A stretch of DNA of 46,955 bases from Teichococcus aerophilus (GTDB taxonomy: Bacteria; Pseudomonadota; Alphaproteobacteria; Acetobacterales; Acetobacteraceae). The stretch covers positions 1 through 46,955 of the forward strand of contig NZ_JACTVA010000045.1 in assembly GCF_014490485.1 (NCBI RefSeq), given 5' to 3'. Below are positions 2,162-32,944 of the stretch, in pieces (the first letter of the stretch is position 1; every line of letters starts with the position of its first letter). Below the pieces are notes generated by a model. It did not search any database. It had not been told where the DNA came from and worked only from the letters and a program-made list of their open reading frames with translations. The position numbers and the translations under genes were made by a program.

Positions 2162-2464
2162 GGGCGGATCGACATGCAGCCGCGGGCAGAAAGGCTGGGG
2201 AAAGAATTCCCCAGGCCCCTTCTTTTTTTCTCCGAGTCTTTTGGGTGTGAATACCGGGGGGGCGTCGGCCATTCCGGGCCAGGCCGGAGTACGCCGAAGG
2301 TGCGTGACCGCCGGAGGCCGATCATTCAGCCCGGATGGCTCACGTCCTTGCTCATGGCCGCACCCGCCAGTCTGAAGCCCCACGCCAACTGACAGAAAAA
2401 GATGGGGTTCCAGGGGAACTCTTTCCCCTGACCTTTTCTCCCCCGCCGAATGTCGATCGGCCCC
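2162..2464. repeat. Intergenic repeat A (about 300 bp, inverted ends)
   Basis: Non-coding element filling most of the 402-base gap between the convergent dmeF and methyltransferase genes. The outer ends are inverted copies: GGATCGACATGCAGCC on the left, and the reverse complement of the right end reads CGATCGACATTCGGC. Similarity continues inwards for about 60 bases through a GGGGAAAGAATTCCCC hairpin and a pyrimidine run, CCCCTTCTTTTTTTC. The reverse complement of the whole element aligns with copy D (23859-24178), and the arms match copies B, C and E. There is no credible ORF. Each arm looks like an intrinsic terminator, one per direction, so the element may end transcription from both neighbours. 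Family identity and mobility are inferred. Confidence 0.75.
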
Positions 2465-2493
2465 AGGGTTATGGGCTTCAGGCCGCAAAACCC

Positions 2494-3303
2494 CTACCTC
2501 TCCTCCCGCTCCTCGCCCGGTGAGAAGCGCATCGCCGCCGGCATCAGCACGCGCCGGCCTTTGGCGGGCAGGGCGTTCACCGGCATGGCGCCGAACATTT
2601 CCTTGCGGGCTTCCACGATGGCCACGCCGGCGAAGCGCGGGGCCAGGGCGCGCCCGGCGCGTTCCCAGATGCCGGCGCCGCGCAGCAGCAGCCGGGTGCG
2701 GAAGGGCGGCACGAAGAGCGCCACCCGACGGCGCTCCACCGTGAACATGGTGCGCTCCAGCAGGCGGGAGAGCTGGCCGGGGGAATAGGGGCGGCCCTGG
2801 CCGAAGGGGGTGGTATCCAGGTGGGCCCAGACGCCGCGCCTGTTGGGCACCACCACCAGCAGGCGGCCATCCTCCTTCAGCACGCGCCACACCTCGCGCA
2901 GCAGGCGGCGGCCGTTCTCAGCGGTCTCCAGCCCATGCACCAGCAGCACGTTGTCGAAGGAGAAGTCCGGGAAGGGCAGTTCCGTCTCCTCCACCAGCGT
3001 GGCCAGGTTGGGCTCGCCGCGCGGCCAGGGCAGCACGCCGGCCTCGGCGGTGCCGGCGGCCAGGGTGCGTTCGGCATGGTCCCGCCACAGGCGCAGGTAG
3101 GGGTTGGCATGGCCCAGACCCAGCACCTGCCGCCCGGTCAGGTCCGGCCACATTTCCTGCAGCCGCGCGCGCAACAGCCGCGCCGCCACCCGGCCGGTGG
3201 GCGATGCGTAAAAATCCCGGTGGGGGAATTCCCGTTGGGAATGTTCCCGGTGCTGGACCTCCCGCCGATGGGACTCGGGGGGGGCGTGGACCTCCGCGCG
3301 CAT
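2494..3303 (-). CDS. Class I SAM-dependent methyltransferase
   Basis: A 269-residue protein if started at ATG 3303; the conserved part begins around DFYASPTGRVAARLLRARL (about residue 30), so a later start is possible. The SAM-binding motif is degenerate, VLGLGHANPYLRLW. Then come FDNVLLVHGLE and a Methyltransf_11-like strand, EVWRVLKEDGRLLVVVPNRRG. The C-terminal half is rich in Arg and ends REER. The substrate cannot be told from sequence. The gene is divergent from gloB with 72 bases between the starts, where both promoters must lie. A neighbour of glyoxalase II in many alphaproteobacteria is a methyltransferase of this kind, which suggests a conserved pairing (recollection, not checked). 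Confidence 0.8.
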   Translation of the reverse strand: MRAEVHAPPESHRREVQHREHSQREFPHRDFYASPTGRVAARLLRARLQEMWPDLTGRQVLGLGHANPYLRLWRDHAERTLAAGTAEAGVLPWPRGEPNLATLVEETELPFPDFSFDNVLLVHGLETAENGRRLLREVWRVLKEDGRLLVVVPNRRGVWAHLDTTPFGQGRPYSPGQLSRLLERTMFTVERRRVALFVPPFRTRLLLRGAGIWERAGRALAPRFAGVAIVEARKEMFGAMPVNALPAKGRRVLMPAAMRFSPGEEREER

Positions 3304-3375
3304 GCACCCGATATAGGGAGGGAAGCGTGACCTGACACGTCCTTCCTGCGGGACGATGAAGAAGAGGACGATGCG

Positions 3376-4107
3376 ATGACCGTGACGGTCCAGGCAGTGC
3401 CCTGCCTTTCCGACAACTACGCCTGGCTTCTGCGGGATACCGCCACCGGCACCGTGGCCATCTGCGACCCGGGCGAGGCCACGCCGATCATCGCCGCACT
3501 GGACGCCGCCGGTGGCCGCTGCGACCTGATCATCCTCACCCACCACCATGGGGACCATGTGAACGGCGTGGATGAGGTGCGGGCCAAGTACGGCGCCAAG
3601 GTCATCGGCGCGCAGGCGGATGTGCACCGGCTGCCGGCGCTGGACCAATCCGTCATCCCCGGCGACACCATCAAGGTGGGGGAGACGGAGGCGCAGGTCA
3701 TCGACAGCCCCGGCCATACGCTGGGCCACGTGGCCTACCACTTCGCCGATGGCGACGTGCTGCTGTGCGGCGATACCCTGTTCTCGCTGGGCTGCGGCCG
3801 GTTGCTGGAGGGCACGGCGGCCGACATGTTCAAGGCGCTTTCCCTGCTGAAGCCGCTGCCGCCAGAGACCCTGGTCTGCGCCGGGCATGAATACACCGAG
3901 AGCAATGCCCGCTTCGCCGTGACGGTGGAGCCGGAGAACGAGGCTTTGCGCCGCAAGGCCGAGGCCGTCGCCGCCGCCCGTGCCGCCGGCCAGCCTACCC
4001 TGCCGGTGACGCTGGGCGAGGAGATGCAGACCAACCCGTTCCTGCGCGCGGCGACGGTGGAGCGCCTGGCCGAGATCCGCAGCGCCAAGGACAATTTCCG
4101 TGGCTGA
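3376..4107 (+). CDS. gloB: Hydroxyacylglutathione hydrolase (glyoxalase II)
   Basis: A 243-residue metallo-beta-lactamase-fold enzyme that hydrolyses S-D-lactoylglutathione to D-lactate and glutathione, the second step of methylglyoxal detoxification. It begins MTVTVQAVPCLSDNYAW, typical of GloB, and has the metal motif THHHGDHVNG (residues 55-64), the second-site segment DSPGHTLGHVAYH, LLCGDTLFSLGCGR, and CAGHEYTESNARFA. The C-terminal glutathione-binding region is complete. Purine-rich AGAAGAGGA precedes the ATG. It is the first gene of a four-gene operon; its last 8 bases overlap the GTG start of the glutathione S-transferase gene. Confidence 0.95.
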   Translation: MTVTVQAVPCLSDNYAWLLRDTATGTVAICDPGEATPIIAALDAAGGRCDLIILTHHHGDHVNGVDEVRAKYGAKVIGAQADVHRLPALDQSVIPGDTIKVGETEAQVIDSPGHTLGHVAYHFADGDVLLCGDTLFSLGCGRLLEGTAADMFKALSLLKPLPPETLVCAGHEYTESNARFAVTVEPENEALRRKAEAVAAARAAGQPTLPVTLGEEMQTNPFLRAATVERLAEIRSAKDNFRG

Positions 4108-4720
4108 GCCCCTCAGCCAGCCGACGCTGCGGCTGTTCTATTCCTCCGGCAGCCCCTTCGTGCGGAAGGTCATGATCTGCGCCATCCTGCGCGGGCTGGA
4201 CAAGCGGCTGGAGCTGCTCACCACCAACCCGCATGTCAGCCCGCCGGAGCTGCTGGCGCAGAACCCGCTCTCCAAGGTGCCGTGCCTGGTGCCATCGGAC
4301 GATCTGCCGATCTTCGACAGCCGGGTGATCTGCGAGTACCTGGACAATCTCGGCACCGCCTCCCCCCTCTTCCCGGATCCGGGGCCGGAGCGGACAGGCT
4401 CCCTGGTGCTGCAGGCGTTGGGGGACGGCATCATGGATGCGGCCGTGGCCCGCCGCATCCAACAGCCCTGGCCGCGGGACGAGGGCCGCCAGGCCTTCGA
4501 CGCCCGGCAGAAAGCCGCCATCGACCGCTCGCTGGACTGGCTGGAGCAGTACCCGCCGGGGCCGTTGCGCGACATCGGCAGCATCGCCGTCGCCTGCGCG
4601 CTGGGATACCTGGATTTCCGCTTCGGCGCGGAGCCCTGGCGCGACAGCCGGCCCAGCTTGGCGGCATGGTTCACCAAGGCCGCCAGCCATCCCGCCATGG
4701 CGGAGACGGTGCCGGCGTGA
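4100..4720 (+). CDS. Glutathione S-transferase family protein
   Basis: A 206-residue GST. The N-terminal thioredoxin-like domain runs over about residues 9-85: LRLFYSSGSPFVRKVMI carries the Ser that replaces a catalytic Cys or Tyr, NPLSKVPCLV holds the cis-Pro, and the glutathione-binding FDSRVICEYLD follows. The helical C-terminal domain has the capping segment GSIAVACALGYLDFRF. The GTG start at 4100 overlaps the end of gloB, and the stop overlaps the GTG of the next gene (GTGA), implying translational coupling. It probably conjugates or transfers glutathione on the same electrophiles that GloB handles; the substrate is unknown. Confidence 0.9.
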   Translation: MAEPLSQPTLRLFYSSGSPFVRKVMICAILRGLDKRLELLTTNPHVSPPELLAQNPLSKVPCLVPSDDLPIFDSRVICEYLDNLGTASPLFPDPGPERTGSLVLQALGDGIMDAAVARRIQQPWPRDEGRQAFDARQKAAIDRSLDWLEQYPPGPLRDIGSIAVACALGYLDFRFGAEPWRDSRPSLAAWFTKAASHPAMAETVPA

Positions 4721-5166
4721 TTCCGCCGGACCTGCGGGACCCTGCCTTGCCGGCGGCGGCGGTGATCGCGGCGCTGGGCCTCGCCCCGCACCCGGAGGGC
4801 GGCCACTACCGCGAGATCTGGCGGGACACACCCGCTGGCGGCGGCCGTGGCAGCGGCACCGCCATCTACTTCCTACTGGCAGCCGGTGAGAGCAGCCACT
4901 GGCACCGGGTGGACGCTACGGAATGCTGGCACTGGTATGCCGGCGGCCCGCTGGCGCTCTCCATCTCGGATGGCCAGGGCGTCGAGGAGAAACTTGTGGG
5001 GCCGGATCTGTCCGCCGGCCAGCAGCCCTTCGGCCTTGTGCCACAGGGTTGGTGGCAGGCGGCGCGGCCGCTGGCGGGCTGGACGCTGGTGGGCTGCACC
5101 GTCAGCCCGGCCTTCGACTTCGCCGGGTTCGAGCTGGCGCCGCCCAGTTGGCAACCCGCGCCATGA
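4717..5166 (+). CDS. Cupin-domain protein (DUF985/Cupin_5 family)
   Basis: A 149-residue single-domain cupin. It begins at GTG 4717, overlapping the GST stop by four bases. Family hallmarks are LGLAPHPEGGHYREIWRD near the N-terminus, TAIYFLLAAGESSHWHRVD, and ECWHWYAGGPLALSIS; the last third is the usual barrel ending in GFELAPPSW. DUF985 proteins are predicted sugar- or small-molecule-binding cupins without an established reaction. The operon position (gloB, gst, cupin, methyltransferase) suggests a role in disposal of reactive carbonyl compounds or their products; this is inference. Confidence 0.85.
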   Translation: MIPPDLRDPALPAAAVIAALGLAPHPEGGHYREIWRDTPAGGGRGSGTAIYFLLAAGESSHWHRVDATECWHWYAGGPLALSISDGQGVEEKLVGPDLSAGQQPFGLVPQGWWQAARPLAGWTLVGCTVSPAFDFAGFELAPPSWQPAP

Positions 5167-5771
5167 GCGACAGCCAGGCCTGGGATGCCCGCTACGACGC
5201 CCAGCCCTGGATGTTCGGGCAGGCGCCCAACCGCTACCTGGAAAGCCTTGCGGCCCGCCTGCCGGCGCGGGGCGAAGCCCTGGCGCTGGGCGATGGGGAG
5301 GGCCGCAACGGACTATTCCTGGCGCGCCATGGCCTGGCGGTGACGGCGGTGGACTGGTCCGCCACCGGCATGGCGCGCGCTTCCGCCTGGGCGGCGGCGG
5401 AGGGGGTGGCGCTGCGCACCGAGACTGCCGACCTGACGCAATGGTCCTGGCCGGAAGCGCGGTTCGACGTCATCGCCTGGATCTTCCTGCACCTGCCGCC
5501 GGAGGACCGTGAAGCGGTGGTGGCAGGCGCGCTGCGCGCCCTGGCGCCCGGCGGCCTGCTGGTGCTGGAGTGTTTCTCGCCCGCCCAGCAGGGCCGCCGC
5601 AGCGGCGGGCCGCGCGATCCCGCGCTGCTGTGGACGCGCGAGCTGGCGGACAGCGCCTTCGCGACGCTGGATGTCCTGGAATGTCTGGAGGGCTGCGTGC
5701 ATCTCGATGAAGGCCCCAAGCACCAGGGACCCGCCGAGGTCGTACGCGGGGCATGGCGCAAGCCCGGCTGA
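5163..5771 (+). CDS. SAM-dependent methyltransferase (TehB-like)
   Basis: A 202-residue class I methyltransferase starting at ATG 5163, overlapping the cupin stop by four bases (ATGA). Features are WDARYDAQPWMFGQAPNRYL at the N-terminus, the SAM motif ALALGDGEGRNGLFLAR, the acidic motif VTAVDWSATGMARA, and FDVIAWIFLHLPPEDR followed by ALAPGGLLVLECFSP. The N-terminus and motif I variant resemble the TehB/thiopurine-methyltransferase-like group, which can methylate tellurite or thiols. The true substrate is unknown. It is the last gene of the gloB operon; the terminator at 5794 follows. Confidence 0.85.
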   Translation: MSDSQAWDARYDAQPWMFGQAPNRYLESLAARLPARGEALALGDGEGRNGLFLARHGLAVTAVDWSATGMARASAWAAAEGVALRTETADLTQWSWPEARFDVIAWIFLHLPPEDREAVVAGALRALAPGGLLVLECFSPAQQGRRSGGPRDPALLWTRELADSAFATLDVLECLEGCVHLDEGPKHQGPAEVVRGAWRKPG

Positions 5772-5793
5772 CGCCACCACCCGCACGCAGAAA

Positions 5794-5819
5794 AGGCCGG
5801 GAAATTCATTCCCCGGCCT
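5794..5819. terminator. Bidirectional hairpin terminator, solo arm of the repeat family
   Basis: AGGCCGGG (5794-5801) pairs with CCCGGCCT (5812-5819) around a 10-base loop, between convergent genes ending at 5771 and 5853. The left flank GCAGAAAAGG and the loop AAATTCATT resemble the arms of repeats A-E, so this may be a single remaining arm. Confidence 0.65.
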
Positions 5820-5852
5820 CGCTGCTTCCCCGGGCTTCATGCTTCCCTGGCC

Positions 5853-6374
5853 TTAGCGCCCGGTGAACCCCACCTTGGCATTCTCACCCGAATGGGCCGG
5901 CTTGCCGGTGGCCAGCGCCTTGGCGTAGCCGAAGGCAAAGGTCAGGTTGGACGAGATGGCGTCCCAGTACTCCGCCTGCTCGATCTGCACCGCGATCAGC
6001 GCGATGCCATCGCCTTCCGGGCCTTCCGGCAGCCAGGTGCGCAGGTCCTCGGTCCAGAGTTCCTTGTTCTTCGCCTTGTCCCGCACCACCCGCGCAGTGC
6101 CGGAGACGGAAACGAAGTCCTGCCCCTTGGGGTCGGAGTAGCCCAGCAGCACGTGCCGGTCGCTTTCCAGCTCGGCAATCTTCGGGCTGTCGTCGCGGGT
6201 GAAGAACCAGAGCGTCTTGCCGTCCGCATCGGGCTTCTGCGCCCGCATCGGCCGGCCATGCAGGTGGCCATTGGAATCCGTCGTCACCATCATGGCGACC
6301 TGGATGTCCTGGATCATCTCGCGCACCTTGATGCGCATCTCATCCTCGTTGCGCGGCGGCTCGGCATTGGCCAT
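5853..6374 (-). CDS. Pyridoxamine 5'-phosphate oxidase-fold protein (general stress protein 26 family)
   Basis: A 173-residue split-barrel flavin-binding-type protein. After a charged start (MANAEPPRNEDEMRIKV) come MMVTTDSNGHLHGRPMRAQK, TLWFFTRDDSPKIAELESD and LLGYSDPKGQDFVSVSGTARVV, the pattern of the YzzA/GSP26 group within the PNPOx-like clan. It ends with the expected C-terminal part, AEYWDAISSNLTFAFGYAKA. These proteins bind FMN or FAD and are often stress-induced; the reaction is not known. It has its own upstream region of about 280 bases and converges on the gloB operon. Confidence 0.88.
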   Translation of the reverse strand: MANAEPPRNEDEMRIKVREMIQDIQVAMMVTTDSNGHLHGRPMRAQKPDADGKTLWFFTRDDSPKIAELESDRHVLLGYSDPKGQDFVSVSGTARVVRDKAKNKELWTEDLRTWLPEGPEGDGIALIAVQIEQAEYWDAISSNLTFAFGYAKALATGKPAHSGENAKVGFTGR

Positions 6375-6498
6375 GGCGATGTCTCCCTGCTGTGTCAGGG
6401 AAGGAACGGCCCGCCCGTCATCCGGTTGCGCCTGCGCTCCCTGGCCGCCCGGCAGCGTGAACCATGCCCCTGAAAGCCACGGGAGGTATTTCAGACCT

Positions 6499-6562
6499 AT
6501 GCTCGAGCCGATGTCGTCCGCGCTCGGCCGATCCGGTCCGCAACGATCAAACCCTGGAGCAT
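6499..6562. repeat. Possible short dispersed repeat with ATGCTC/GAGCAT ends
   Basis: The 281-base gap 6375-6655 has no gene. Within it ATGCTC (6499-6504) and GAGCAT (6557-6562) are inverted, and the right side reads GATCAAACCCTGGAGCATG. That end resembles GAGCATGAT-type dispersed repeats of alphaproteobacteria as I remember them. Only one copy is in the window, so this is tentative. Confidence 0.25.
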
Positions 6563-6655
6563 GATGCGGTCACTATCGTGCACGCAGCCTGCTCTCAGCC
6601 TCTATCTGATCGCGTCATTCAGGCCTTTCGGTGCCTCCACCTCAGGCCATCACGC

Positions 6656-7090: not shown

Positions 7091-7121
7091 GACATTTGGG
7101 TGCCCGGCGTGGAGGCTGCCG

Positions 7122-8217: not shown

Positions 8218-9000
8218 ATGAGCCTCAAGCGACAGGCCGCGAACTTGCTGGAGCGTATGTCCGGCAACCTGATCATCCCCGCCCACGAGCTGCACCTGCT
8301 GCCCGAGCGGCTGCACCTGCGGCGCCTGTTCGATTATCTCGACATCGATTGCGTCTTCGATGTCGGCGCCAATGCCGGACAGTACGCGACGATGCTGCGC
8401 GAACAGGTCGGCTATCGTGGCCCCATCATCTCCTTCGAACCCATCCCTGAGCTCGCCGCCTCTCTGCGCGAACGCGCCGCGCAGGACCCGGATTGGCACA
8501 TCGAGGCCATGGCACTGGACCGGGAAGCCGGCACGGCCACCTTCCACGTCATGCGCGAGAACGAGTTCAGCTCCCTCCGCCGCCCGGCCGGAAACCAACC
8601 GGGGACCTTCGCCGCCGCCAACGACATCGTGCGCGATATCCAGGTCGAACGCTCCACCGTCCAGGCGCAGATGCAGCGCTGGCAGACCCAGCTCGGCTTC
8701 AAGCGCCCCTTCCTGAAGATGGACACCCAGGGCAACGACCTTGCGGTGATGGAAGGCGCTGGGGACAGCCTGGCCGCGTTCGCCGGGCTGCAAACGGAGC
8801 TGGCCATCCTCCGCCTCTATGACGGCTCGGCCGATTTCGCCGCCACCCTCTCCGCCTGCCAGGACAAGGGCTTCGTCGTCAGTGCCTTCGTTCCCAACAA
8901 CGAAGGCAAGTTCCCGGTCCTTGTCGAAATCGACTGCATCCTGATCAACAAGGCACTCGCACCGGCGGATGTGCAGATCGGGACCGGCGCGGCGCATTGA
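8218..9000 (+). CDS. FkbM-family methyltransferase
   Basis: A 260-residue SAM-dependent methyltransferase of the FkbM type, usually O-methylating sugars in polysaccharides, glycolipids or glycosylated natural products. Key segments are CVFDVGANAGQYATMLRE (SAM motif I), ISFEPIPELAASLRERA (the family FEP motif), FLKMDTQGNDLAVMEGAG (K-D-Q-G-D motif) and the C-terminal VEIDCILINK. The start at ATG 8218 follows GGGAGAGATTG. It is a single gene, with no glycosyltransferase or polysaccharide export gene next to it, so its target is unknown. The AT-richer upstream region hints that it may have been acquired. Confidence 0.92.
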   Translation: MSLKRQAANLLERMSGNLIIPAHELHLLPERLHLRRLFDYLDIDCVFDVGANAGQYATMLREQVGYRGPIISFEPIPELAASLRERAAQDPDWHIEAMALDREAGTATFHVMRENEFSSLRRPAGNQPGTFAAANDIVRDIQVERSTVQAQMQRWQTQLGFKRPFLKMDTQGNDLAVMEGAGDSLAAFAGLQTELAILRLYDGSADFAATLSACQDKGFVVSAFVPNNEGKFPVLVEIDCILINKALAPADVQIGTGAAH

Positions 9001-9049
9001 GGGCGGTGCTGTGGCCGGCAGGAGACGGGACTATTTGTGGGTAGAAGAC

Positions 9050-9295
9050 AAGGCCGGGGAAGGAATTCCTCGGTCCCGTTCTTTTTTCTGCGAGTTAAGC
9101 GTCACGGCTCGGGACTGAGAGCGGACGCTTCTTGATGCATTTAATATAGGCCGCGCGGGCTGAACCGTCAGTCGCCGGAGGTCCTGGACCTCCGCGCACC
9201 CAGCCGTGTCTCAGGACCGAACCTGCCAACAGCCACGCCAACAAAACTCGAACAAAGAAAAGATGGGGTCCGGGGAATTCCTTCCCCGGCCTTCT
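9050..9295. repeat. Intergenic repeat B (about 246 bp)
   Basis: Element between convergent fkbM and the DUF4893-like gene; the 329-base gap holds nothing else. The left arm is AAGGCCGGGGAAGGAATTCC with a following T-rich run; the right arm is its inverted copy, with AAAGAAAAGATGGGG before the hairpin and CCCCGGCC after it. The internal ~110 bases, including GGCTGAACCGTCAGTCGCCG, are nearly the same as in copy C (12165-12411). No ORF. Probably works as a two-way terminator, like the other copies. Confidence 0.75.
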
Positions 9296-9329
9296 CCCCG
9301 TGCGACAAAAAAGCGGTACCCCGCCCCCT

Positions 9330-9923
9330 TCAGCGCCGCAGATCGAGAATGGAGAAGGAGCGTCCGCCCCGGTCCAGCAGTTCCAGCCGCAGATGGCGGG
9401 AGGAGACCGGGACCAGATAGCCCACCTGGTTCCGCTCCGGGTCCTGGCCGTAGCGGTAGGGTTGCTCGTTGTCCCCCCAGGCTTCGGCACCCGCGTATCC
9501 CAGCCGGGTCTCGCCAATGTCGTAGAAGGTGCCGGAGGTGCGCTGGGAGCCTGTCAGCTTCTCCAGCCGCAACCCGGCGGCATCGTCGGTGATGCGGCAG
9601 CGGAACTCGGCATAGACGACGACGGCGAGGTACTTGCTGAACTGGATGGAGCGGCAGCGCCAGTCGCCCGCCATGGCGGCGGGGGCCAGCGCGGTGGCCT
9701 CGCCTTGAAGGGCGCGTTCCAACTGGTCCACGTCGGCGGGATCGCCCTCGGCACGGGCGGTGTCGATGGCCCGGAAGCGGGTGTGGGCGAACGCCTCCAG
9801 CCCCTGCCGGTCGGTGTCGGAGAGCGTGTTGGGAAAGCTGCCCTCGGCCAGGGCGGCGCCGGCCGTGAGGGTCACGGCCAGGCTTGCCATCAGGGCGGCG
9901 CGGCGAAAGGACGATCCGTTCAT
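9330..9923 (-). CDS. Secreted protein, DUF4893-like
   Basis: A 197-residue exported protein. The start MNGSSFRRAALMAS (9923) gives a clear Sec signal peptide (basic n-region, LAVTLTAGAALAE, cleavage near residue 27). The mature part has DWRCRSIQFSKYLAVVVYAEFRCRI with paired cysteines, then TGSQRTSGTFYDIGETRLGYAGA and a C-terminal LRLELLDRGGRSFSILDLRR. The Cys-containing DWRCR block and overall length fit the DUF4893 family of small alphaproteobacterial periplasmic proteins. Function is unknown. The family name is from memory and moderately certain; the signal peptide is clear. Confidence 0.75.
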   Translation of the reverse strand: MNGSSFRRAALMASLAVTLTAGAALAEGSFPNTLSDTDRQGLEAFAHTRFRAIDTARAEGDPADVDQLERALQGEATALAPAAMAGDWRCRSIQFSKYLAVVVYAEFRCRITDDAAGLRLEKLTGSQRTSGTFYDIGETRLGYAGAEAWGDNEQPYRYGQDPERNQVGYLVPVSSRHLRLELLDRGGRSFSILDLRR

Positions 9924-9982
9924 GCCGTCTGGTTTACCGACCTGCCGGCAGGCTGCCCAGCGGTGCCAGGCAGCCCCCGCGT

Positions 9983-12164: not shown

Positions 12165-12411
12165 AAAGGCCGGGGAAGGAATTCCCCGGACCCCATCTTC
12201 TGTTTTCGAGCTTGGCATTGGCGCTGCAGGACTGAGAGCGGACGCTGCTTGATGATTTTAAATATGGGCAACAAGGGCTGAACCGTCAGTCGCCGGAGGT
12301 CCTGGGACTCTGGCGCACCCAGCCGTCTCTCAAGCTCAACCCTTCAACAGCGACAGCCCAAAAACTCGAAAAAGAAAAGAAGGGGTCCGGGGAATTCCTT
12401 CCCCGGCCTTC
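12165..12411. repeat. Intergenic repeat C (about 247 bp)
   Basis: Element between dppD and the bestrophin gene (both minus strand), the only copy not at a convergent junction. The left arm is AAGGCCGGGGAAGGAATTCC then CCCATCTTCTGTTTTCGAG; the right arm is CTCGAAAAAGAAAAGAAGGG then the inverted hairpin ending CCGGCCTT. The central block GGACTGAGAGCGGACGCT ... GGCTGAACCGTCAGTCGCCG ... CGCACCCAGCCGT is shared with copy B. It may terminate bestrophin transcription before the Fur-controlled promoter. Confidence 0.75.
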
Positions 12412-12445: not shown

Positions 12446-13348
12446 CTAACCCAGATAATACCGTACCGGCACCAGCGGGGCCGGCAGGTCTGTCTCGCCA
12501 CTGGCGGCGCGCAGCTCGATCTCGACCATGCGGGTCATGGCGTCCAGCGGCAGGTCGTTGGGTTCCTCGCCGAAGGGTTCTTCCAACTGGTCGCCCAGGG
12601 CATCGAGTCCGAAGAAGGCGTAGGCCAACAGGGCCGCCACCAGGGGCGTGCCCAGCCCCATGGCGCTAACCATGCCGAACGGTACGAGCAGGCAGAACAG
12701 GAAGGCCGTTCGGTGCAGTAGCAGGGTGTAGGCGAAGGGCAATGGCGTGGTGACGATGCGCTCGCACGCCGCCTGCACTTCGGAGAGGCCGGTGAGCCGG
12801 GCTTCCAGGCCGCGATAGAGGATGTCGGTCAGCGCTCCGTCGCGCCAGGCGGCCACCAGCTCGGCATTCATGGCGCGCAGGATGGCGTCGGGCGGGTTGG
12901 GGCTGGTTGGCAGCGTGGCGGCGATGGCGGGCGGCAGCCAGGGCGTGGCGGCGGCCACCACGTCCCGCTTGCGCAGCCGGGCGCACAGGGCGTGGGTGTA
13001 GCCGATGCCCAGCCGCAGCAGCACCGGGCGCGGTCCCAGCAATGCGCCTGCCTCCCGCGCCAGGCCGCGCATCTCGATGATCAGGCGGCCCCATTGCTTC
13101 CGCCCTTCCCACCAGCGGTCGTAGCAGGCGTTGTTGCGGAAGCCGAGGAAGACGGAGAGCGCCAGGCCGAACAGCGCGAAGCCGCCCAGCGGGAATTCCG
13201 GCATCACATGCGGCCAGCGCCGGTCGATCAGCACCACCACGGCGCCCAGCAGCGCCACGGCGATGACGCGCGGCGCCACGATGGGCACGATGGAGCCGCG
13301 GAGGATGAACAACAGGGCCCAGGAATGCGGCAGGGAACGCAGGATCAT
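12446..13348 (-). CDS. Bestrophin-family membrane protein (YneE/UPF0187)
   Basis: A 300-residue membrane protein of the bestrophin family, predicted anion or cation channels. Hydrophobic helices lie near residues 20-40 and 55-70, with the family signature FLGFRNNACYDRWWEGRKQWG (written here as one motif at about residues 68-88), and again at about 205-245 (LLLHRTAFLFCLLVPFGMVSA, GLGTPLVAALLAYAFFGLDAL). The conserved acidic region DQLEEPFGEEPNDLPLDAM follows, which in bestrophins forms the gate and ion-binding region. The start is ATG 13348. A 194-base gap separates it from the DUF1345 gene upstream, so it may have its own promoter. Confidence 0.9.
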   Translation of the reverse strand: MILRSLPHSWALLFILRGSIVPIVAPRVIAVALLGAVVVLIDRRWPHVMPEFPLGGFALFGLALSVFLGFRNNACYDRWWEGRKQWGRLIIEMRGLAREAGALLGPRPVLLRLGIGYTHALCARLRKRDVVAAATPWLPPAIAATLPTSPNPPDAILRAMNAELVAAWRDGALTDILYRGLEARLTGLSEVQAACERIVTTPLPFAYTLLLHRTAFLFCLLVPFGMVSAMGLGTPLVAALLAYAFFGLDALGDQLEEPFGEEPNDLPLDAMTRMVEIELRAASGETDLPAPLVPVRYYLG

Positions 13349-22066: not shown

Positions 22067-23809
22067 ATGCGCGTCGCCACCCCACCGGCCGTGGCGCGGC
22101 GCCGGCTGGCTTTCACCCTGCTCTGCCTGGGCATCGGGCTGCTGCTGCTGGCGCTGCTGTGGCGGGCCCTGGCCCCGGGGGGCTGGACGGGATGGGAAAT
22201 CGCCATCCTGCTGGCCTATGCCGGCACCATTCCGTGGTCCGCCATCTCCGCCGCCAATGCACTGGTCGGGTTCGTGCTGCGCCTCTCCCGCCCGCTGCCG
22301 CCGCTGGAGCCCGCTCCTTCCCTGCACCGGGCACACGCCACGCCTTTGCCCGACCGCACGGCGCAAGACGCCTCCCCCTCGGGCCATCACACCGGCACGT
22401 CCCGCGCCGCCATCGCGCTTTGCATCCGCAATGAGACGATGGCCGATGTCCTGGCCCCGCTTCCCGCCCTGCTGGATGGGCTGGAAGCGGCCGGGCAAGG
22501 CCACCGCTTCGTGCTCTGGTTCCTCTCCGACACGCAGGACCCGGTGAAGGCGGCACGGGAGGAAACGGCCATCGCCGGCTTCCTCGCCCAGCGCGCCGGC
22601 CGGCCGATTCCGGTGCGCTACCGCCGCCGCATGCACAATACCGGCTTCAAGGCCGGCAATGTCATGGAGTTCATGGACCAGCACGCCGCCGGCCTCGATT
22701 TCATGCTGAGCCTCGATGCGGACTCCGCCATGTCCGCCGCCGCTGTGCTGCGGCTGGTGGCGGCGATGGATGCCGACCCGAAGCTGGCCATCCTGCAGCA
22801 GCTTATCGCCGGCCGGCCGGCCGAGGCCGCCTTCGCGCGCCTGTTCCAGTTCGGCATGCGCGCCGGCATGCGCAGCTGGGCGACGGGGCAGGATTGGTGG
22901 CAGGCGGATGAAGGCCCGTATTGGGGCCATAACGCCATCATCCGCATCCCCGCCTTCCGCGCCCATGCCCGGCTGGACGACCTGCCGAATGGCGACCAGC
23001 TGCTCAGCCACGACCAGATCGAGGCCGTGCGCCTGCATGCCGCCGGCTGGAAGGTGCGCTGCCTGCCGGACGACACCGGCAGCCTGGAAGCCAGCCCGCC
23101 CGCCATGCCGGAATTCCTGTTGCGGGACCGCCGCTGGGGCGCCGGCAACATGCAGTACTGGCCGCTGCTGGCGCTGCCCTGGCTGCGGCCGATGGGCCGC
23201 TGGCAACTGGCACAGGCCATCCTGCTGTTCGTTACCGCGCCGCTCTGGCTGGTGCTGCTGGCGGCGGCGGTGGGCAACGCCGTCTCCGGCGGCGGCGCCA
23301 CCACGCCGCCCGGCGCGCTTGCGGCGGTGCTGGTCGCCACCTGGCTCGCCTATTATGCGCCGAAGCTGACTGGCTACCTGGAAGCGCTGCTGCGCACACC
23401 ACTAGCGCGCAGCTTCGGCGGCCGCTGCATGCTGCTACGCGGCATCGTGGCCGAGATTGCCTTCACCACGATGTTCGAGCCAGTGAGCCTGACCAGCAAG
23501 GGCCTGCACCTGCTGGCGTTGCCCTTTGGCGGTGGCGCCGGCTGGGCACCGCAAAACCGCCAGGCCCGCGGCGTGGCCTGGGCGGACGCGGCGCGGCTGC
23601 TCTGGCCGCAGACCTTGCTGGGGGCCGCCGGCCTGGCGGCGCTGCTGTTGGCCGGCGGTACGGCGCCGCTCTGGGGCGCGCCGATTCTGCTGCCGCTGCT
23701 GCTGGCCATCCCGTTCTGCGTCGCCACTGCTTCTCCCACTCTGTCGTCCTGGCTGCGGCGCGGTCGCTTCTGCGCCACGCCAGAGGAACTGGCGGGGACG
23801 GCTGGCTGA
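22067..23809 (+). CDS. mdoH: Glucan glucosyltransferase MdoH/OpgH-like
   Basis: A 580-residue GT2-family membrane glycosyltransferase. Two helices near the N-terminus precede the catalytic domain: ALCIRNETMADVLA, NTGFKAGNVMEFMD, the DxD-type LSLDADSAMS, the acceptor/TED-like DEGPYWGHNAIIR and SHDQIEAVRL, and a QxxRW-like RDRRWGAGNMQYW. Several C-terminal helices follow. This matches OpgH, which makes osmoregulated periplasmic glucans from UDP-glucose at the inner membrane. It is much shorter than E. coli OpgH (847 residues), lacking the long N-terminal cytoplasmic region. The usual partner opgG is not beside it. The start at ATG 22067 follows GCAGGAGG. Confidence 0.88.
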   Translation: MRVATPPAVARRRLAFTLLCLGIGLLLLALLWRALAPGGWTGWEIAILLAYAGTIPWSAISAANALVGFVLRLSRPLPPLEPAPSLHRAHATPLPDRTAQDASPSGHHTGTSRAAIALCIRNETMADVLAPLPALLDGLEAAGQGHRFVLWFLSDTQDPVKAAREETAIAGFLAQRAGRPIPVRYRRRMHNTGFKAGNVMEFMDQHAAGLDFMLSLDADSAMSAAAVLRLVAAMDADPKLAILQQLIAGRPAEAAFARLFQFGMRAGMRSWATGQDWWQADEGPYWGHNAIIRIPAFRAHARLDDLPNGDQLLSHDQIEAVRLHAAGWKVRCLPDDTGSLEASPPAMPEFLLRDRRWGAGNMQYWPLLALPWLRPMGRWQLAQAILLFVTAPLWLVLLAAAVGNAVSGGGATTPPGALAAVLVATWLAYYAPKLTGYLEALLRTPLARSFGGRCMLLRGIVAEIAFTTMFEPVSLTSKGLHLLALPFGGGAGWAPQNRQARGVAWADAARLLWPQTLLGAAGLAALLLAGGTAPLWGAPILLPLLLAIPFCVATASPTLSSWLRRGRFCATPEELAGTAG

Positions 23810-23858
23810 GGAGCTGTGCCCCGGACAGCAACGCCTGATAAGGGTGATGCCGGGCTGG

Positions 23859-24178
23859 AACCGATCGACAATTCAACGTGGGGCGGGGAAGAAGGTCGGG
23901 GGACGAATTTCCCTGCGTAAACGTATACGTTTACGCCATCTTTTTCTGTCCGTTGGCGCGGGGCTTCAGGACTGGTGGGTGTAGCCGTGAGCAAGATCAT
24001 GGGCCGCTCGGGCGGAACCGCCTGCCTCCGGCGGCTCTGACCAACGACGTGATGTTGGTCTGGGCCCAGAATGGCCGACGCCCTCAGAGCTACTCCCGAA
24101 CGACTCGCAGAAAAAAAAGAAGGGGTCGGGGAATTCCTTCCCCGGCCTTCCTGCCAAGGCTGCATGTCGATCTGCCCC
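23859..24178. repeat. Intergenic repeat D (about 320 bp, inverted relative to A)
   Basis: Fills most of the 436-base gap between convergent mdoH and the PEP-CTERM gene. Its plus strand aligns with the reverse complement of copy A: CCATCTTTTTCTGTC, then GTTGGCG-GGGGCTTCA, GTGAGCAAG, TGGCCGACGCCC near the right, and the outer end GGCTGCATGTCGATCTGCCC. The right arm is GGGGAATTCCTTCCCC preceded by an A-rich run. The left arm is degenerate and contains a 22-base palindrome not found in the other copies. No ORF. Confidence 0.75.
23915..23936. repeat. Perfect 22-bp palindrome inside repeat D
   Basis: GCGTAAACGTA followed by its exact reverse complement, TACGTTTACGC. It sits in the left arm where copy A has a plain hairpin. 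It could be an operator-like binding site or the scar of an insertion. Confidence 0.6.
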
Positions 24179-24245: not shown

Positions 24246-24947
24246 TCACGCCCGGCGCCGCCGCAGCGCTACTCCAAGCCCCAGCAGCGCCACCGCCAAG
24301 AGGCTGACCGAGCCCGGTTCCGGCACAGGGGTGTACCTCAGCACCATGGCCTCGTTCAGTTTGAACGAGGCAAAGTTGTCGGTATCCGCCGTGCGAAAGA
24401 TGGTGATGGTATCGGTCGGCGCGAACAGCTCACCCCAGAAGCCCTGGTAGCGGAACGGGCTGGGGCCGGAGAAATCCTCCAGCCGGAAGCCGAAGAACGG
24501 CACGTTGCCCCAGCCCGAGCCCTCGAACCGGTAATCCAGCATGCCATACAGGCCGACCACCTCGTAGGGCAGCTTGTAGGTGATGGCCTTGACGCCGAGG
24601 CAGCCGTTGAACAGCGGATGGCAATTGAATACGCCCGACAGCCGCCCTTCCGCCGGCGGCTGCGGCAGTGCGGCCAGGCTGCGGTCGCTGTAGCCGCTCG
24701 GGGCATAGGGGCTTGCCCCAGGGCCGACATAGACCGGATCGTTTGCCGTGGCGCGGGTCCAGCCGCCATAGGTGTCGCTGAACTGTTCCGCCACCAGCGG
24801 CAGGGGGCTCGCGGCAACGGCCGGCAGGGCACCCAACGCGGCATTCCAGTCATCGACCTTCAGATACGCCGCCTCGGCCCGGGGGGCGGCACCGGCCAGC
24901 GCCACGGCTGCCATCACGCCGAAGACCATCTTCCTCAACCGGCTCAT
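24246..24947 (-). CDS. PEP-CTERM sorting-domain exoprotein
   Basis: A 233-residue secreted protein. The signal peptide is MSRLRKMVFGVMAAVALAGA, with cleavage near residue 26 (AEA). The body has no recognised domain (YLKVDDWNAALGALP, FNCHPLFNGCLG with two Cys). The C-terminus is a canonical PEP-CTERM tripartite signal: VPEPG, a hydrophobic helix SVSLLAVALLGLGVAL, then RRRR. Exosortase recognises this and moves the protein to the envelope or extracellular polysaccharide. The start at 24947 follows AGGGGAGG; a longer frame to 25019 is unlikely. A sigma-54-like promoter lies just upstream. The exosortase gene is not in the window. Confidence 0.88.
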   Translation of the reverse strand: MSRLRKMVFGVMAAVALAGAAPRAEAAYLKVDDWNAALGALPAVAASPLPLVAEQFSDTYGGWTRATANDPVYVGPGASPYAPSGYSDRSLAALPQPPAEGRLSGVFNCHPLFNGCLGVKAITYKLPYEVVGLYGMLDYRFEGSGWGNVPFFGFRLEDFSGPSPFRYQGFWGELFAPTDTITIFRTADTDNFASFKLNEAMVLRYTPVPEPGSVSLLAVALLGLGVALRRRRA

Positions 24948-24979
24948 CCTTGCCTCCCCTGCATCAGCAAAAGGCAGGA

Positions 24980-25804: not shown

Positions 25805-25871
25805 CGGGCTTGAACTCGGCGGCGGGGCCAAGGTTCCAGCCGCTGCCGGCGGCCCCGCCGGGCCGTCCGGT

Positions 25872-29794: not shown

Positions 29795-30055
29795 GATCCC
29801 CCTATTCTGGGGCCGCCGGGGGCCGGATGGAAGAGCAGTGCGGTTGCACCGTGCCGGCAGCCCCTCTTCCGGCGCCGCGCCGGCGACCAGGCCTTCGCCG
29901 CATCAGGCCACAAGCGCCACGTGCGCCATCCGCGCAACGGCGGTGATCCCCGCCAGGATGGGCCTGTCCCAAAGCCGGCGGGTTCCGCATGAGGACCACG
30001 GCTGTCAAAGACCGCGCAGCCGCTTCATGCTGCGGTCCATCTCTCCCCGAACCGG

Positions 30056-30604
30056 ATGCCGCACCCTTTGCAGACGTCTCAGCCCGCCCTCATCCTCTGC
30101 CTGCAACTGGACCCGGCCTCCTTCGCCAGGCTGGACGCGCTGCGCCAGGCGCATTTCCCGCCGGAGCGGAACCACCTCTCTGCCCACCTGACGTTGTTCC
30201 ACGCCCTGCCCGGCGCGATGCTGGAGGAGATTTCGGCCAACCTGGCCACGCTCGCGGCAGGTACGCCGCCCATGGCACTGCGCTTCGCCGGGCTGCGGGG
30301 GCTGGGCGGCGGCGTCGCCTTCACGGTGGAGAGCCCGGCGCTGGTGGCGCTGCGCGGCCTGTTGGCTTCTGCCTGGCACGCGGTGCTGGGGGCGCAGGAC
30401 AAGCAGGGCTTCCGCCCGCATGTGACCGTGCAGAACAAGGTGACTACGCCGCAGGCCCAGGCCCTGATGGCCGAGTTGCAGGACGGCTTCATGCCATGGG
30501 AGGGCCAGGGCGAGGGCCTCGCCCTCTGGCACTATCGCGGCGGGCCGTGGGAGCCCGCCGCGAGCTTCCGCTTCAGCGGTTCGGGTAAGTCCGCGGATAG
30601 GTGA
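30056..30604 (+). CDS. 2H phosphoesterase (2'-5' RNA ligase-like)
   Basis: A 182-residue protein with the two HxT motifs of the 2H phosphoesterase superfamily: AHLTLFHAL (about residues 42-50) and PHVTVQNK (about 121-128). The early strand ALILCLQLDPASFARLDALR is also typical. Such enzymes act on 2',5' or cyclic phosphate RNA ends or small cyclic nucleotides; the substrate is unknown. It is the only plus-strand gene between lptM and lysA, and its 3' end overlaps the lptM coding region by 32 bases. The 261 bases upstream (29795-30055) show no other gene. Confidence 0.85.
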   Translation: MPHPLQTSQPALILCLQLDPASFARLDALRQAHFPPERNHLSAHLTLFHALPGAMLEEISANLATLAAGTPPMALRFAGLRGLGGGVAFTVESPALVALRGLLASAWHAVLGAQDKQGFRPHVTVQNKVTTPQAQALMAELQDGFMPWEGQGEGLALWHYRGGPWEPAASFRFSGSGKSADR

Positions 30605-30701
30605 TCTGGTCCGGCGGCCCGGGCGGGCGGATCGGCCCCGGGCGGCCGCAGGCGGCCACCAGGAAGCTGAGTGCCAGCAGGGCCAGGATACCGCGCGTCA
30701 T
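30573..30701 (-). CDS. lptM: Small lipoprotein, LptM/YifL-like
   Basis: A 42-residue lipoprotein too short for ordinary ORF lists. [18 protein letters not shown] ends in a lipobox with Cys18, followed by [13 protein letters not shown], the CG-x-GP-x-PP pattern of LptM. In E. coli LptM helps maturation of the LptD/LptE lipopolysaccharide translocon. The ATG at 30701 overlaps the argH stop (ATGA), so it is coupled to argH, and in many alphaproteobacteria it sits between argH and lysA as here. Its 3' end runs into the convergent 2H phosphoesterase gene. Confidence 0.82.
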
Positions 30702-32098
30702 GCCAGTCGCTCCCGCCACTCGGCGGCCATGCGGCGGACATTCACCGGCGCCGTGCCACCATAAGAGGTGCGCGAGGCCACCGAGGCCTCGACGCTCAGC
30801 ACCTGGAAGATGCCGTTATGAATGCGCGGCTCCTCCGCCTGCATCTCGTCCAGCGACAGGCCGGCGAGGTCGACATTCTTCGCCTCCGCCTTGGCCACCA
30901 GGCGGCCCGTGACGTGGTGAGCATCGCGGAACGGCATCCGCAGCTCCCGCACCAGCCAGTCGGCCAGGTCCGTCGCGGTGGAGAAGCTGGCACCCGCCGC
31001 TTCGCGCAGCCGGGCGGCGTCGGGCTTCATGTCCCGCACCATGCCGGCGGTCGCGGCCAGGGAGAGGGCCATGGTCTCGGCGGCGTCGAAGATGCCTTCC
31101 TTGTCCTCCTGCATGTCCTTGCCATAGGTCATGGGCAGGCCCTTCATCACCGTCAGCAGCCCGACCAGCGCGCCGGAGACGCGGCCGACCTTGGCGCGCA
31201 CCAGCTCGGCGGCGTCAGGGTTGCGCTTCTGCGGCATGATGGAGCTGCCGGTGGTGTAAGCGTCGGAGAGCTTGACGAAGCCGAAATACGGGTTCGTCCA
31301 CAGCACCACCTCCTCCGCAAAGCGGGAGAGATGCGTGCCGCAGATCGCCAGCGTGGAGAGGAACTCCAGCGCGAAGTCGCGGGAGGCCACGGCATCCAGG
31401 CTGTTGCGCGTCGGGCCATCGAAGCCCAGCGCATGCGCCGTCATGTGCCGGTCGATGGGGAAGCCGGTGCCGCAGAGCGCGGCGGCACCCAGCGGGCTCT
31501 CATTCATCCGCGCCCGGCAATCGCCGAGGCGCGAGCGGTCCCGCCCCAGCATTTCCACATAGGCCAACAGGTGGTGGCCCAGCGTCGTCGGCTGGGCGGG
31601 CTGCAGGTGGGTGAAGCCGGGCATCACCGTGGCGGCGTGCTCGTCGGCCCGTTCCACCAGCGCCTGCATCACGTCGGCAATCTGGCCATCCAACCCGTCA
31701 ATGGCATCGCGCACCCACAGGCGCACATCCAGCGCCACCTGGTCGTTGCGGCTGCGGGCGGTGTGCAGGCGCTTGCCGGCCTCGCCCACGCGCTCCGTCA
31801 GCCGTGCCTCGATATTCATGTGGATATCCTCCAGCGCCTCGCTGAAGGGGAATTCGCCAGCCTCGATCTCGGCGCCGATGGCGTTCAGGCCTTCCTTGAT
31901 GGCGGCCTCGTCATCGGCGGAAATGATCCCTACATGCCGCAGCATGGCCGCGTGGGCCAGGCTGCCACGGATATCCTGCCGCCACATCTTGCGGTCGAAG
32001 CCGATGGAGGCATTGATGGCCTCCATGATGGCCGAGGGGCCGCCGCTATACCGGCCTCCCCACTGCTGGTTGCCCTGGCTGCGCTGCTGAGTGGACAA
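30698..32098 (-). CDS. argH: Argininosuccinate lyase
   Basis: A 466-residue fumarase/aspartase-superfamily enzyme splitting argininosuccinate into arginine and fumarate. Typical parts are [21 protein letters not shown] at the start, [33 protein letters not shown], and the signature [12 protein letters not shown] (about residues 277-288). The start is TTG at 32098, chosen because the conserved N-terminus begins almost at once after it and GAGGCG lies about 8 bases upstream; the next Met is residue 25. It is coupled to lptM at its 3' end. The divergent tlpA-like gene starts only 15 bases away. Confidence 0.95.
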
Positions 32099-32113
32099 GG
32101 AAGGATTCGCCTC

Positions 32114-32656
32114 GTGTTGCCGATCGGACGCCGCCCGCTTCTCTCGTCGCTGGCCGCAGGGGCGACCCTAACCACGCTGCTTCCGGCACGGCAAGGGATG
32201 GCGGCGATGCGGACGCTCAACATCGCGCCGCCAAAGCCTGTGCCGCCCCTCACCTTCACCGATGCGGACGGCAAGCCCTACGACCTCGGCGCCTTTCGCG
32301 GAAAGATGCTGCTGGTCAATCTCTGGGCCACCTGGTGCGCCCCCTGCGTGGCTGAGATGCCGGCGCTGGACCGCGCGCAGAAAGCCCTGGAAGCCGAGGG
32401 CTGGACCGTCCTGCCCCTCTCCTCCGACCGTGGCGGCAAGGCCCAGGTGGCGCCGTTCTACGAGCGGACCGGCCTGAAAAACCTCGGCATCTGGCTGGAC
32501 CCCCGCAGCGCCGCCACCCGCGCCCTGGGCGCGCGCGGCCTGCCCACCAGCGTCATCATCGACCGGGAAGGCCAGGAACTAGCCCGGCTGGAGGGCGAGG
32601 CCGAGTGGGATTCGCCCGCCATGCTGGCCAGCCTGCGGGAACTGGCCGGCGGCTGA
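32114..32656 (+). CDS. tlpA: TlpA-family thiol:disulfide reductase
   Basis: A 180-residue thioredoxin-fold protein with an N-terminal export signal ([20 protein letters not shown], possibly twin-arginine) and the redox motif WATWCAPC (Cys75, Cys78). The cis-Pro is in [12 protein letters not shown]. It probably reduces disulfides in the periplasm, for example for cytochrome c maturation. The GTG start at 32114 is the best fit, since a signal peptide follows; it leaves only 15 bases to the argH start. A TlpA-like gene divergent from argH is common in alphaproteobacteria. Confidence 0.88.
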
Positions 32657-32672
32657 AGCCGGCGGGGAGAGC

Positions 32673-32944
32673 AAGGCTGGGGAAGGAATTCCCCAGACCC
32701 CTTCTTCTTTTCTGGAAGTTTTCGGGCGTGGCTTCGGAAAGCGAAGGCCTGTGAGCCAGAGGCGTTGCTCTTGAGAACAGGGCTAAGCCCGTGCACCCTT
32801 ATGTTCGTGATCCAAAGAGAGCCCACGGCTGCGCCGCACCAGAGCCCTTCCCTGGCTGCCGAAGCGAGCACTGGCTGCAAGACTATGTCATTGAAAAAGA
32901 AAAGGACCAGGGGTCGGGGGGGGAGAATTCATTCTCCCCCGGTT
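32673..32944. repeat. Intergenic repeat E (about 270 bp)
   Basis: Occupies the 320-base gap between convergent tlpA and the basic unknown gene. The left arm is AAGGCTGGGGAAGGAATTCC then CCCTTCTTCTTTTCTGG; the right arm has TTGAAAAAGAAAAGG and GGGGAGAATTCATTCTCCCC, again inverted. The interior is more diverged than in the other copies, with few recognisable shared blocks. No ORF. Confidence 0.7.

What the first reader, a model, noticed from the sequence alone, without database searches (positions are those of the whole stretch)
2162..32944. Five-copy family of about 250-320 bp inverted-end repeats, mostly between convergent genes
Seen: copies at 2162-2464, 9050-9295, 12165-12411, 23859-24178 and 32673-32944. 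All are bounded by inverted arms of the form AAGGCCGGGGAAGGAATTCC followed by a CCCC-TTCTTTTT run, giving two hairpins with a T-rich run or its complement on the inner side. Four of five lie between convergent genes, and the fifth separates a gene's 3' end from a Fur-box promoter. Inference: MITE-like elements kept as bidirectional terminators or gene-boundary insulators. I do not recognise this family from the literature.
Basis: partly seen in the sequence, partly recalled or inferred. Interest (0 to 1): 0.75.

Follow-up and report, generated by a model that had tools for sequence, protein, structure and literature searches.

The report
Paired-hairpin repeats capping convergent genes
This bacterium carries hundreds of copies of a folded, non-coding repeat, placed mostly where two genes run head-on into each other, that looks like a spreading element which may also work as a two-way stop signal for transcription.

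Summary
The five copies are real; a sixth, single-arm site lies at 5793-5819. The genome (5.66 Mb) holds about 600 copies by extrapolation: the arm pattern hits 346+346 times at <=2 mismatches, reversed-pattern control 0.

Each full copy is two inverted "hairpin + CCCC + T-tract" arms around a core. In an 847-kb sample, elements occupy 67 of 104 convergent junctions, 48 of 498 co-directional and 6 of 104 divergent, a median 28 bp from the stop codon. At one variable stem pair the two arms differ in 47 of 100 elements, yet each arm keeps its own pair (84 of 94 cells); at the other stem pairs differing arms often lose it (43 of 78 kept).

Relatives (Pseudoroseomonas and kin) show the same plan with other arms or cores. 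A 190-bp copy lies between two genes that overlap by 4 bp in four close relatives.

No target duplication at the ends, no Y1 transposase and no autonomous partner were found. Best reading: a lineage-expanded, non-autonomous repeat retained as a bidirectional intrinsic terminator. Function is inferred; there are no RNA data.

The parts
2162..2464 (.). element copy 1 (AAGG..CCTT unit 2191-2434, core in minus orientation; outer inverted repeat GATCGACAT 2167-2175 / ATGTCGATC 2450-2458); between cation-efflux gene 1174-2091(+) and methyltransferase gene 2494-3189(-)
5793..5819 (-). degenerate single arm: hairpin followed on the minus strand by TTTTCT; convergent gap 5771(+)/5853(-)
9050..9293 (+). 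element copy 2, common core; between FkbM-methyltransferase gene 8218-9000(+) and DUF4893 gene 9330-9890(-)
9050..9092 (+). left arm of copy 2: hairpin then T-tract
9251..9293 (-). right arm of copy 2, inverted (not called by the simple terminator scan)
9149..9205 (+). two-hairpin central motif (GGCTGAACCGTCAGTC + CGCCGGAGGTC..GACCTCCGGCG type); modelled as R1
12166..12410 (+). element copy 3, common core; co-directional junction, 35 bp from the 3' end of bestrophin-like gene 12446-13348(-)
12267..12324 (+). two-hairpin central motif of copy 3
23859..24178 (+). element copy 4 (unit 23892-24149), with an extra palindrome GCGTAAACGTATACGTTTACGC (23915-23936) inside the left arm; between glycosyltransferase gene 22067-23809(+) and PEP-CTERM gene 24246-24929(-)
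32673..32943 (.). element copy 5: same kind of arms, unique core; between redoxin gene 32240-32656(+) and ORF 32977-33495(-)

Best explanation
A lineage-expanded, non-coding, structured repeat. Each full copy is two inverted terminator-like modules (stem CCGGGGAA/TTCCCCGG with a GGAA-type loop, then ACCCCTTCTTTTTT) flanking a folded core. SHOWN: the repeat family, its copy number, its position at gene 3' ends, well-kept arm hairpins with one stem pair that changes on both sides, T-tracts after the hairpin in both directions, gain at sites empty in relatives, the same plan with other arms and cores in related species. INFERRED: an RNA polymerase leaving either convergent gene meets a hairpin and U-tract first and stops, so one copy ends two transcripts; copies spread by a trans-acting machinery not yet identified (not Y1/RAYT) and are kept where this helps or does not hurt; the arm hairpins are then maintained by selection. 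Likelihood: real spreading family about 0.9; retained as bidirectional intrinsic terminators about 0.6.
For: Copy number: arm pattern at <=2 mismatches 346+346, reversed control 0; exact 16-mer core 728 in G000, 162 of them in the sample that holds 134 profile hits, giving about 600 copies. Position: convergent 67 of 104 junctions, co-directional 48 of 498, divergent 6 of 104, none wholly inside a predicted gene; convergent vs rest OR 18, p 9e-34. Distance to stop codon: median 28 bp; of 52 co-directional copies 44 lie nearer the upstream 3' end than the downstream start. Same excess in G014 (12 of 32 convergent vs 7 of 157 other) and G010 (11 of 62 vs 10 of 306; some G010 stretches were picked for carrying copies). 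Hairpins: the eight inner stem pairs are Watson-Crick in 176-193 of 200 arms; pair 6 is CG 117, TA 30, GC 20, AT 19, and where the two arms differ there (47 of 100 elements) local pairing is kept in 84 of 94 cells. One orthologous copy in G000 and G006 differs at one stem pair in each arm, both compensated. Tail: 184 of 204 arms have >=6 T in 8 nt, random genome 8 of 2000; the 5' flank pairs with the tail in 193 of 204 folds, which brings the stem up to the T-tract. Perfect stems of >=8 bp outside the element remain in 6 of 67 element-bearing convergent junctions against 14 of 37 element-free ones (p 6e-4; leftovers are shorter, so partly a length effect). Gain: genes overlap in G010, G013, G008, G016; a 190-bp element lies between them in G000 and G006.
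Against: No RNA data. At stem pairs 2-5 and 7, where arms of one element differ, the local pair is kept in only 43 of 78 cells, so the two-sided change rests mainly on pair 6, and shared ancestry of a few arm variants could explain part of it. On A2 the number of pairs with a two-sided change (18) does not exceed the slid controls (17-22), though the number of such cells does (63 vs 22.9 shuffled); RNAalifold preferred arm-to-arm pairing with no covariation support (term 0.08). The simple terminator scan of copy 2 called one site, the left arm, with 0.7 expected in shuffles, and missed the right arm. A copy sits between overlapping, presumably co-transcribed genes (DUF6352/DUF3305) and is kept in two species. 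52 of 133 classified copies are co-directional and 6 divergent. In G006 the convergent bias is weak (6 of 25 vs 19 of 143, p 0.22) and G008 is too sparse (1 of 25 vs 0 of 149). Fold z-scores of consensus arms are modest, -1.5 to -2.1, and most of the flank's contribution is composition (permuted flanks -24.5, real -25.4 kcal/mol). Excess at 3' ends is also what harmless insertion plus purging would give. The sampled contigs were among those with the best hits.
Confidence: 0.58

Rival explanations
1. Plain non-autonomous transposon (MITE-like) without host function: copies survive only where insertion is harmless, at 3' ends and convergent gaps; the hairpins are recognition structures for the mobilising enzyme.
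For: Large copy-number differences within the genus (long arm pattern at <=1 mismatch: 605 in G000 vs 0-49; part of this is arm sequence divergence, since the short core gives 728 in G000 and 286 in G014); presence/absence at orthologous junctions; 25 of 102 two-armed copies have unique cores; stem pairs other than pair 6 often break when arms differ.
Against: No target duplication at the AAGG/CCTT ends in 102 copies and no offset that stands out; no autonomous partner seen in what was read; no near-identical young copies within the sample (nearest neighbours 64-92% among 72 copies); compensated arms within one orthologous copy; T-tracts in both directions are not needed by a transposase.
Confidence: 0.24
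2. REP/BIME-type element: hairpins that bind gyrase or protect mRNA 3' ends, not terminators.
For: Known REPs lie near 3' ends and between convergent genes (PMC3733652, passages); convergent sites are where supercoils collect (general knowledge).
Against: No systematic GTAG/CGTC tag near the arms (GTAG 1, CTAC 0, CGTC 2, GACG 3 of 102); no Y1 transposase in the genome; T-tract after the hairpin on both sides.
Confidence: 0.08
3. DNA-uptake-signal pairs used as terminators, as in Neisseria and Pasteurellaceae.
For: Paired inverted repeats at convergent ends are known for uptake signals (PMC1852404, passages).
Against: Only 4 of 261 arm hits in the sample lie inside genes, whereas uptake signals are also common in genes (general knowledge); the unit is a 245-bp element, not a 10-mer.
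Confidence: 0.02
4. A structured regulatory RNA or sRNA gene family whose core is the functional part; the arms are its own terminators.
For: The two-hairpin core covaries across species (43 doubly changed cells, shuffles 15.1, 0 of 500 reach it) and is found with other flanking hairpins in another genus. One sigma-70-like match lies in the core of copy 2 (9 of 12 positions, minus strand 9171-9143), none in 50 shuffles.
Against: 25 of 102 copies have unrelated cores; genus-mates with many arms lack the core (G001, G004: 0; G014: 4). Promoter matches were not looked for in other copies.
Confidence: 0.08

Closest known systems
SPRITE of Streptococcus pneumoniae (PMC3049150, passages seen)
   Same: small interspersed repeat, terminator-like stem and U-rich tract, close to gene 3' ends, over-represented between convergent genes (15 of 30), proposed co-option as terminator, no clear target duplication
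   Different: 30 copies against about 600; one stem with one U-rich tract against two facing hairpin/T-tract modules around a core; unrelated host; sequence relation not tested
REP/BIME/REPIN with RAYT (PMC3733652, passages seen)
   Same: palindromes, inverted pairs, 3'-end and convergent location, high copy number
   Different: no GTAG tag, no Y1 transposase in this genome, longer unit with T-tracts
CGTC-tagged REPs of Alphaproteobacteria (PMC3733652, passages seen)
   Same: alpha-proteobacterial palindromes without a known transposase, next to 3' ends
   Different: no CGTC tag; the paper says CGTC repeats are missing in Acetobacteraceae
MITEs such as ERIC, Correia, Chunjie (PMC10969869, passages seen)
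   Same: short, inverted ends, intergenic, up to hundreds of copies (ERIC 711 in Photorhabdus)
   Different: no target duplication at the ends, no partner transposase found, arm hairpins vary separately
Paired uptake signals as terminators (PMC1852404, passages seen)
   Same: repeat sequence doing terminator duty at tail-to-tail genes
   Different: long structured element; rarely inside genes

Membership tests
MITE (non-autonomous DNA transposon) | inverted terminal repeats, short, multicopy | tested here: met
   102 two-armed copies of 157-510 bp in 847 kb
MITE (non-autonomous DNA transposon) | target-site duplication | tested here: inconclusive
   none at the AAGG/CCTT ends for k=2-11 in 102 copies, no offset up to 33 stands out; the one clean empty site is compatible with a 4-bp RTGA duplication, but selection for stop and start would give the same
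MITE (non-autonomous DNA transposon) | autonomous partner with the same ends | tested here: inconclusive
   two wide arm spans among the 100 places listed of 692 were opened: one is an IS1595-type IS inserted into a copy, one two neighbouring copies; about 1 of 5.66 Mb was read, and it was not scanned systematically for this
MITE (non-autonomous DNA transposon) | mobility | tested here: met
   presence/absence at orthologous junctions
REP/REPIN (RAYT-mobilised) | GTAG tag | tested here: not met
   GTAG near an arm in 1, CTAC in 0 of 102
REP/REPIN (RAYT-mobilised) | Y1 tyrosine transposase in the genome | tested here: not met
   PF01797: 0 hits at E<=0.001 in G000; 5 of 14 control genomes positive
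CGTC-tagged REP | CGTC tag | tested here: not met
   CGTC in 2, GACG in 3 of 102
Intrinsic (Rho-independent) terminator | GC-rich hairpin followed by U-tract | tested here: met
   arm hairpins 96.5% and 98.2% paired in 57 copies; 184 of 204 tails T-rich. The T-tract is some 8-9 nt from the inner stem and adjoins it only if the outer GAAGG/CCTTC pairs form; the simple scan called one of two arms of copy 2
Intrinsic (Rho-independent) terminator | transcripts end there | not testable with these tools
   no RNA data
SPRITE | sequence homology to pneumococcal SPRITE | not tested
   compared by description only
DNA uptake signal | also frequent inside genes | tested here: not met
   4 of 261 arm hits inside genes; uptake itself not testable
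Any Rfam family | covariance-model match | tested here: not met
   0 at gathering on the window, 0 at E<=1 on 8990-9340

The most novel reading that the evidence does not exclude
A selfish, structured element has taken over transcript ending in one bacterial lineage: a mobile bidirectional terminator with interchangeable hairpin arms and cores, spread by an unrecognised, non-Y1 mechanism that leaves no duplication at the element ends, now serves about two thirds of convergent gene junctions and is displacing ordinary short terminators of the kind still seen in a relative. It is the most expanded member seen here of a family-wide class of paired-hairpin elements (GGGGTCC-hairpin arms in 63 of 150 Acetobacteraceae genomes).
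Probability: 0.32. Interest if true: 0.8.

Novelty: new variant of a known kind. Interest (0 to 1): 0.56.

Why it matters
If true, a spreading repeat has become the standard end-of-gene signal of a genome, which makes terminator birth and turnover visible site by site: the same junction can be compared empty, with an ordinary terminator, or with one of several arm types across sister species. It also poses a mobility question (no known transposase found, no clear duplication), and related arms appear widespread in Acetobacteraceae while the window gives no Rfam match.

Tried and rejected
REPIN/RAYT: no PF01797 protein in G000 and no systematic GTAG tag, rejected. CGTC REP: rejected (PMC3733652 also says absent from this family). 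Uptake signals: rejected on location. Autonomous IS with the same ends: the two widest arm spans noticed among the 100 listed places were opened; C56 is an IS1595-type IS inside a copy, C7 a full copy next to one that lacks its left hairpin. Phage or plasmid carriage: phages 0, IMG/VR pattern 0; plasmids 1 record, a 36-base arm match in P. cervicalis pL11-B, 2 places. A scan of viral contigs with the glycosyltransferase next to copy 4 found no relative and bears on nothing here. Rfam: nothing. RNAalifold on A2 preferred arm-to-arm pairing; the local-hairpin reading rests instead. A single-arm orientation count used a pattern that found 118 arms where about 200 were expected, so it is not used. 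The promoter-like match in the core of copy 2 (none in shuffles) was not followed in other copies. Intrastrand triplex (PMC4666352, passages): in 129 of 204 arms that could be parsed, GGGGAA..TTCCCC is followed by CCCC+3 nt, CCCCTTC in 77, so a triplex is possible but untested.
Full report
WHAT WAS CHECKED. The arm core GGGGAANGAATTCCCC occurs 11 times in the window at <=2 mismatches against 0.12 expected; the extra one is a degenerate single arm at 5793-5819 in another convergent gap.

COPY NUMBER. In the genome the 20-base arm pattern has 346 forward and 346 reverse hits at <=2 mismatches, the reversed control 0. BLAST with copy 3 scored 40 of 544 first-look candidates; the 40 full-length matches (copy 3 itself included) had E <= 4.3e-67. 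I sampled 800 kb of seven contigs plus the window (846,609 bases); the contigs were among those with the best hits, so density is biased upward. A profile found 134 elements or fragments. Scaling by exact arm cores (162 in the sample, 728 in the genome) gives about 600 elements, about 460 of them two-armed.

ANATOMY. Arm: AAGG, stem CCGGGGAA, loop GGAA or similar, stem TTCCCCGG, then ACCCCTTCTTTTTT. The two arms are inverted, so the T-tracts face inward. Outside AAGG/CCTT there are 8-12 bases of purine (left) or pyrimidine (right) excess. Seven of 102 copies carry an extra palindrome GCGTAAACGTATACGTTTACGC and three another, ATCAAACCTATAGGTTTGAT. Twenty of 102 have an outer inverted repeat GATCGACATTCGG on at least one side.

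LOCATION. With my own ORF/hexamer gene caller (714 genes), elements occupy 67 of 104 convergent, 48 of 498 co-directional and 6 of 104 divergent junctions, and none lies wholly inside a predicted gene (overlaps of up to 22 bp with a gene end occur); by element 75 convergent, 52 co-directional, 6 divergent, 1 at a sample edge. Median distance to a stop codon is 28 bp at convergent sites; co-directional copies are a median 28 bp from the upstream stop and 168 bp from the downstream start, 44 of 52 nearer the former. Of 60 convergent junctions with a single element, 31 leave <=40 bp on both sides, so there the element leaves little room for another terminator. The looser arm pattern (<=2 mismatches) does hit inside genes, 4 times of 261. 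In relatives the convergent excess is clear in G014 and G010, weak in G006, and G008 has too few.

STRUCTURE. In 100 of the 102 elements both arms could be parsed. The eight inner stem pairs are Watson-Crick in 176-193 of 200 arms. Pair 6 is CG 117, TA 30, GC 20, AT 19 (186 of 200); in 47 elements the two arms differ there, and the local pair is kept in 84 of 94 cells. At pairs 2-5 and 7 together arms differ 39 times and the local pair is kept in 43 of 78 cells, that is, often lost in one arm. So the two-sided change is concentrated at one pair; shared ancestry of a few arm variants may explain part of it. On an alignment of 57 of the 77 core-sharing copies the arm hairpins are 96.5% and 98.2% paired, the central hairpins 95.0% and 92.1%, the other core helices 83-91%; doubly changed cells are 63 against 22.9 in shuffles, but pairs with such a change (18) do not exceed the slid controls (17-22). 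RNAalifold chose arm-to-arm pairing with a covariation term of 0.08. The strongest single case is an orthologous copy in G000 and G006 that differs at one stem pair in each arm, both compensated; replacement by another copy cannot be excluded.

CORE MOTIF. The two central hairpins recur in relatives with changed stems. In 49 sequences (15 of 51 available from G000; 34 of 45 relative hits, leaving out ten opposite-strand echoes and one weak hit in L121) there are 43 doubly changed cells against 15.1 in shuffles, 0 of 500 as high, and 6 such pairs against 2-5 in slid controls. Model R1 matches 11 of 17 genus members at E<=0.001 (G000 150, the scoring cap; G010 85; G007 61) and 5 of 120 family genomes, in 2 of 102 genera, with stricter filters. 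In nine loci of the second genus the core sits between other hairpins, in G019 with a right arm that resembles the present type.

GAIN AND LOSS. Among 58 gene neighbourhoods shared by the G000 and G010 samples, 6 carry an element in G000 (4 co-directional, 1 convergent, 1 divergent); none of the 6 has this arm type in G010. The reverse, an arm hit in the relative and none in G000, occurs in 1 of 58 with G010, 1 of 9 with G006, 1 of 38 with G014 and 0 of 29 with G008. One of the 6 (C54:51767) has a core with the other arm type in G010; one (C54:58084) was not looked at by eye. At C54:14842 G010 has an ordinary short hairpin GCGCCGCCCGG..CCGGGCGGCGC instead. Cleanest case, C49:9813/10004: stop and start overlap in G010, G013, G008 and G016; G001, G009, G002 and G003 have 7-9 bp, G014 and G004 about 80 bp of other sequence; G000 and G006 have 190 bp between TGA and ATGA (12 of 17 genomes gave a match). 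One site is shared collinearly with G010 (C97:140440). Within the sample the copies are old: nearest neighbours among 72 are 64-92% identical.

MOBILITY. No target duplication at the element ends (102 copies), no Y1 transposase, no autonomous partner in the two wide arm spans opened. So how it spreads is open.

TERMINATION. 184 of 204 arms have >=6 T in 8 nt after the hairpin against 8 of 2000 random genomic windows; with 14 nt of 5' flank the fold averages -25.4 kcal/mol, -24.5 with permuted flanks and -21.2 with random genomic flanks, and the flank pairs with the tail in 193 of 204. The mechanism proposed, one polymerase stopped from each side, is inferred. Against it: the simple terminator scan of copy 2 called the left arm only, with 0.7 sites expected in shuffles; a copy between overlapping genes; co-directional and divergent copies; weak bias in G006; modest fold z-scores.

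LITERATURE. Passages were seen in PMC3733652, PMC3049150, PMC1852404, PMC10969869, PMC4666352 and PMC2267715. Of eight paper searches, those aimed at Roseomonas or Acetobacteraceae listed, judged by title and abstract start, no description of this family. The library is open-access PMC only, so absence from print is not established. The nearest idea seen is SPRITE.

Noticed in passing
L273:1553-2296 (G000:C56): An IS with a DDE_Tnp_IS1595 transposase sits inside one element core, flanked by what looks like a direct repeat AATTTTAAA.
   Followed up: partly
window 23915-23936; 7 of 102 sampled copies: A palindrome GCGTAAACGTATACGTTTACGC (in 3 other cases of 102 ATCAAACCTATAGGTTTGAT) is nested between the arm hairpin and the T-tract.
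   Followed up: partly
L226, L232, L237, L241, L245 and junctions in G006/G008: A second, T-poor design with two hairpins per side joined by ACCCC/GGGGT-type linkers around a similar core; an outer arm type of this design matches 63 of 150 family genomes.
   Followed up: partly
arms in general: GGGGAA-loop-TTCCCC-loop-CCCCTT has the mirror layout of an intrastrand pyrimidine triplex; CCCCTTC in 77 and CCCCATC in 34 of 129 parsed arms.
   Followed up: no
G000:C75 vs C97: Element density is very uneven: 14 profile hits in 180 kb of C75 against 42 in 160 kb of C97; replicon type or age may differ.
   Followed up: no
L062:9292-10963: A DUF6352-DUF3305 gene pair, overlapping in four relatives, is split by an element in G000 and G006.
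   Followed up: yes
window 9143-9171 (-): A sigma-70-like match (9 of 12) in the AT-rich part of the core of copy 2; none in 50 shuffles.
   Followed up: no
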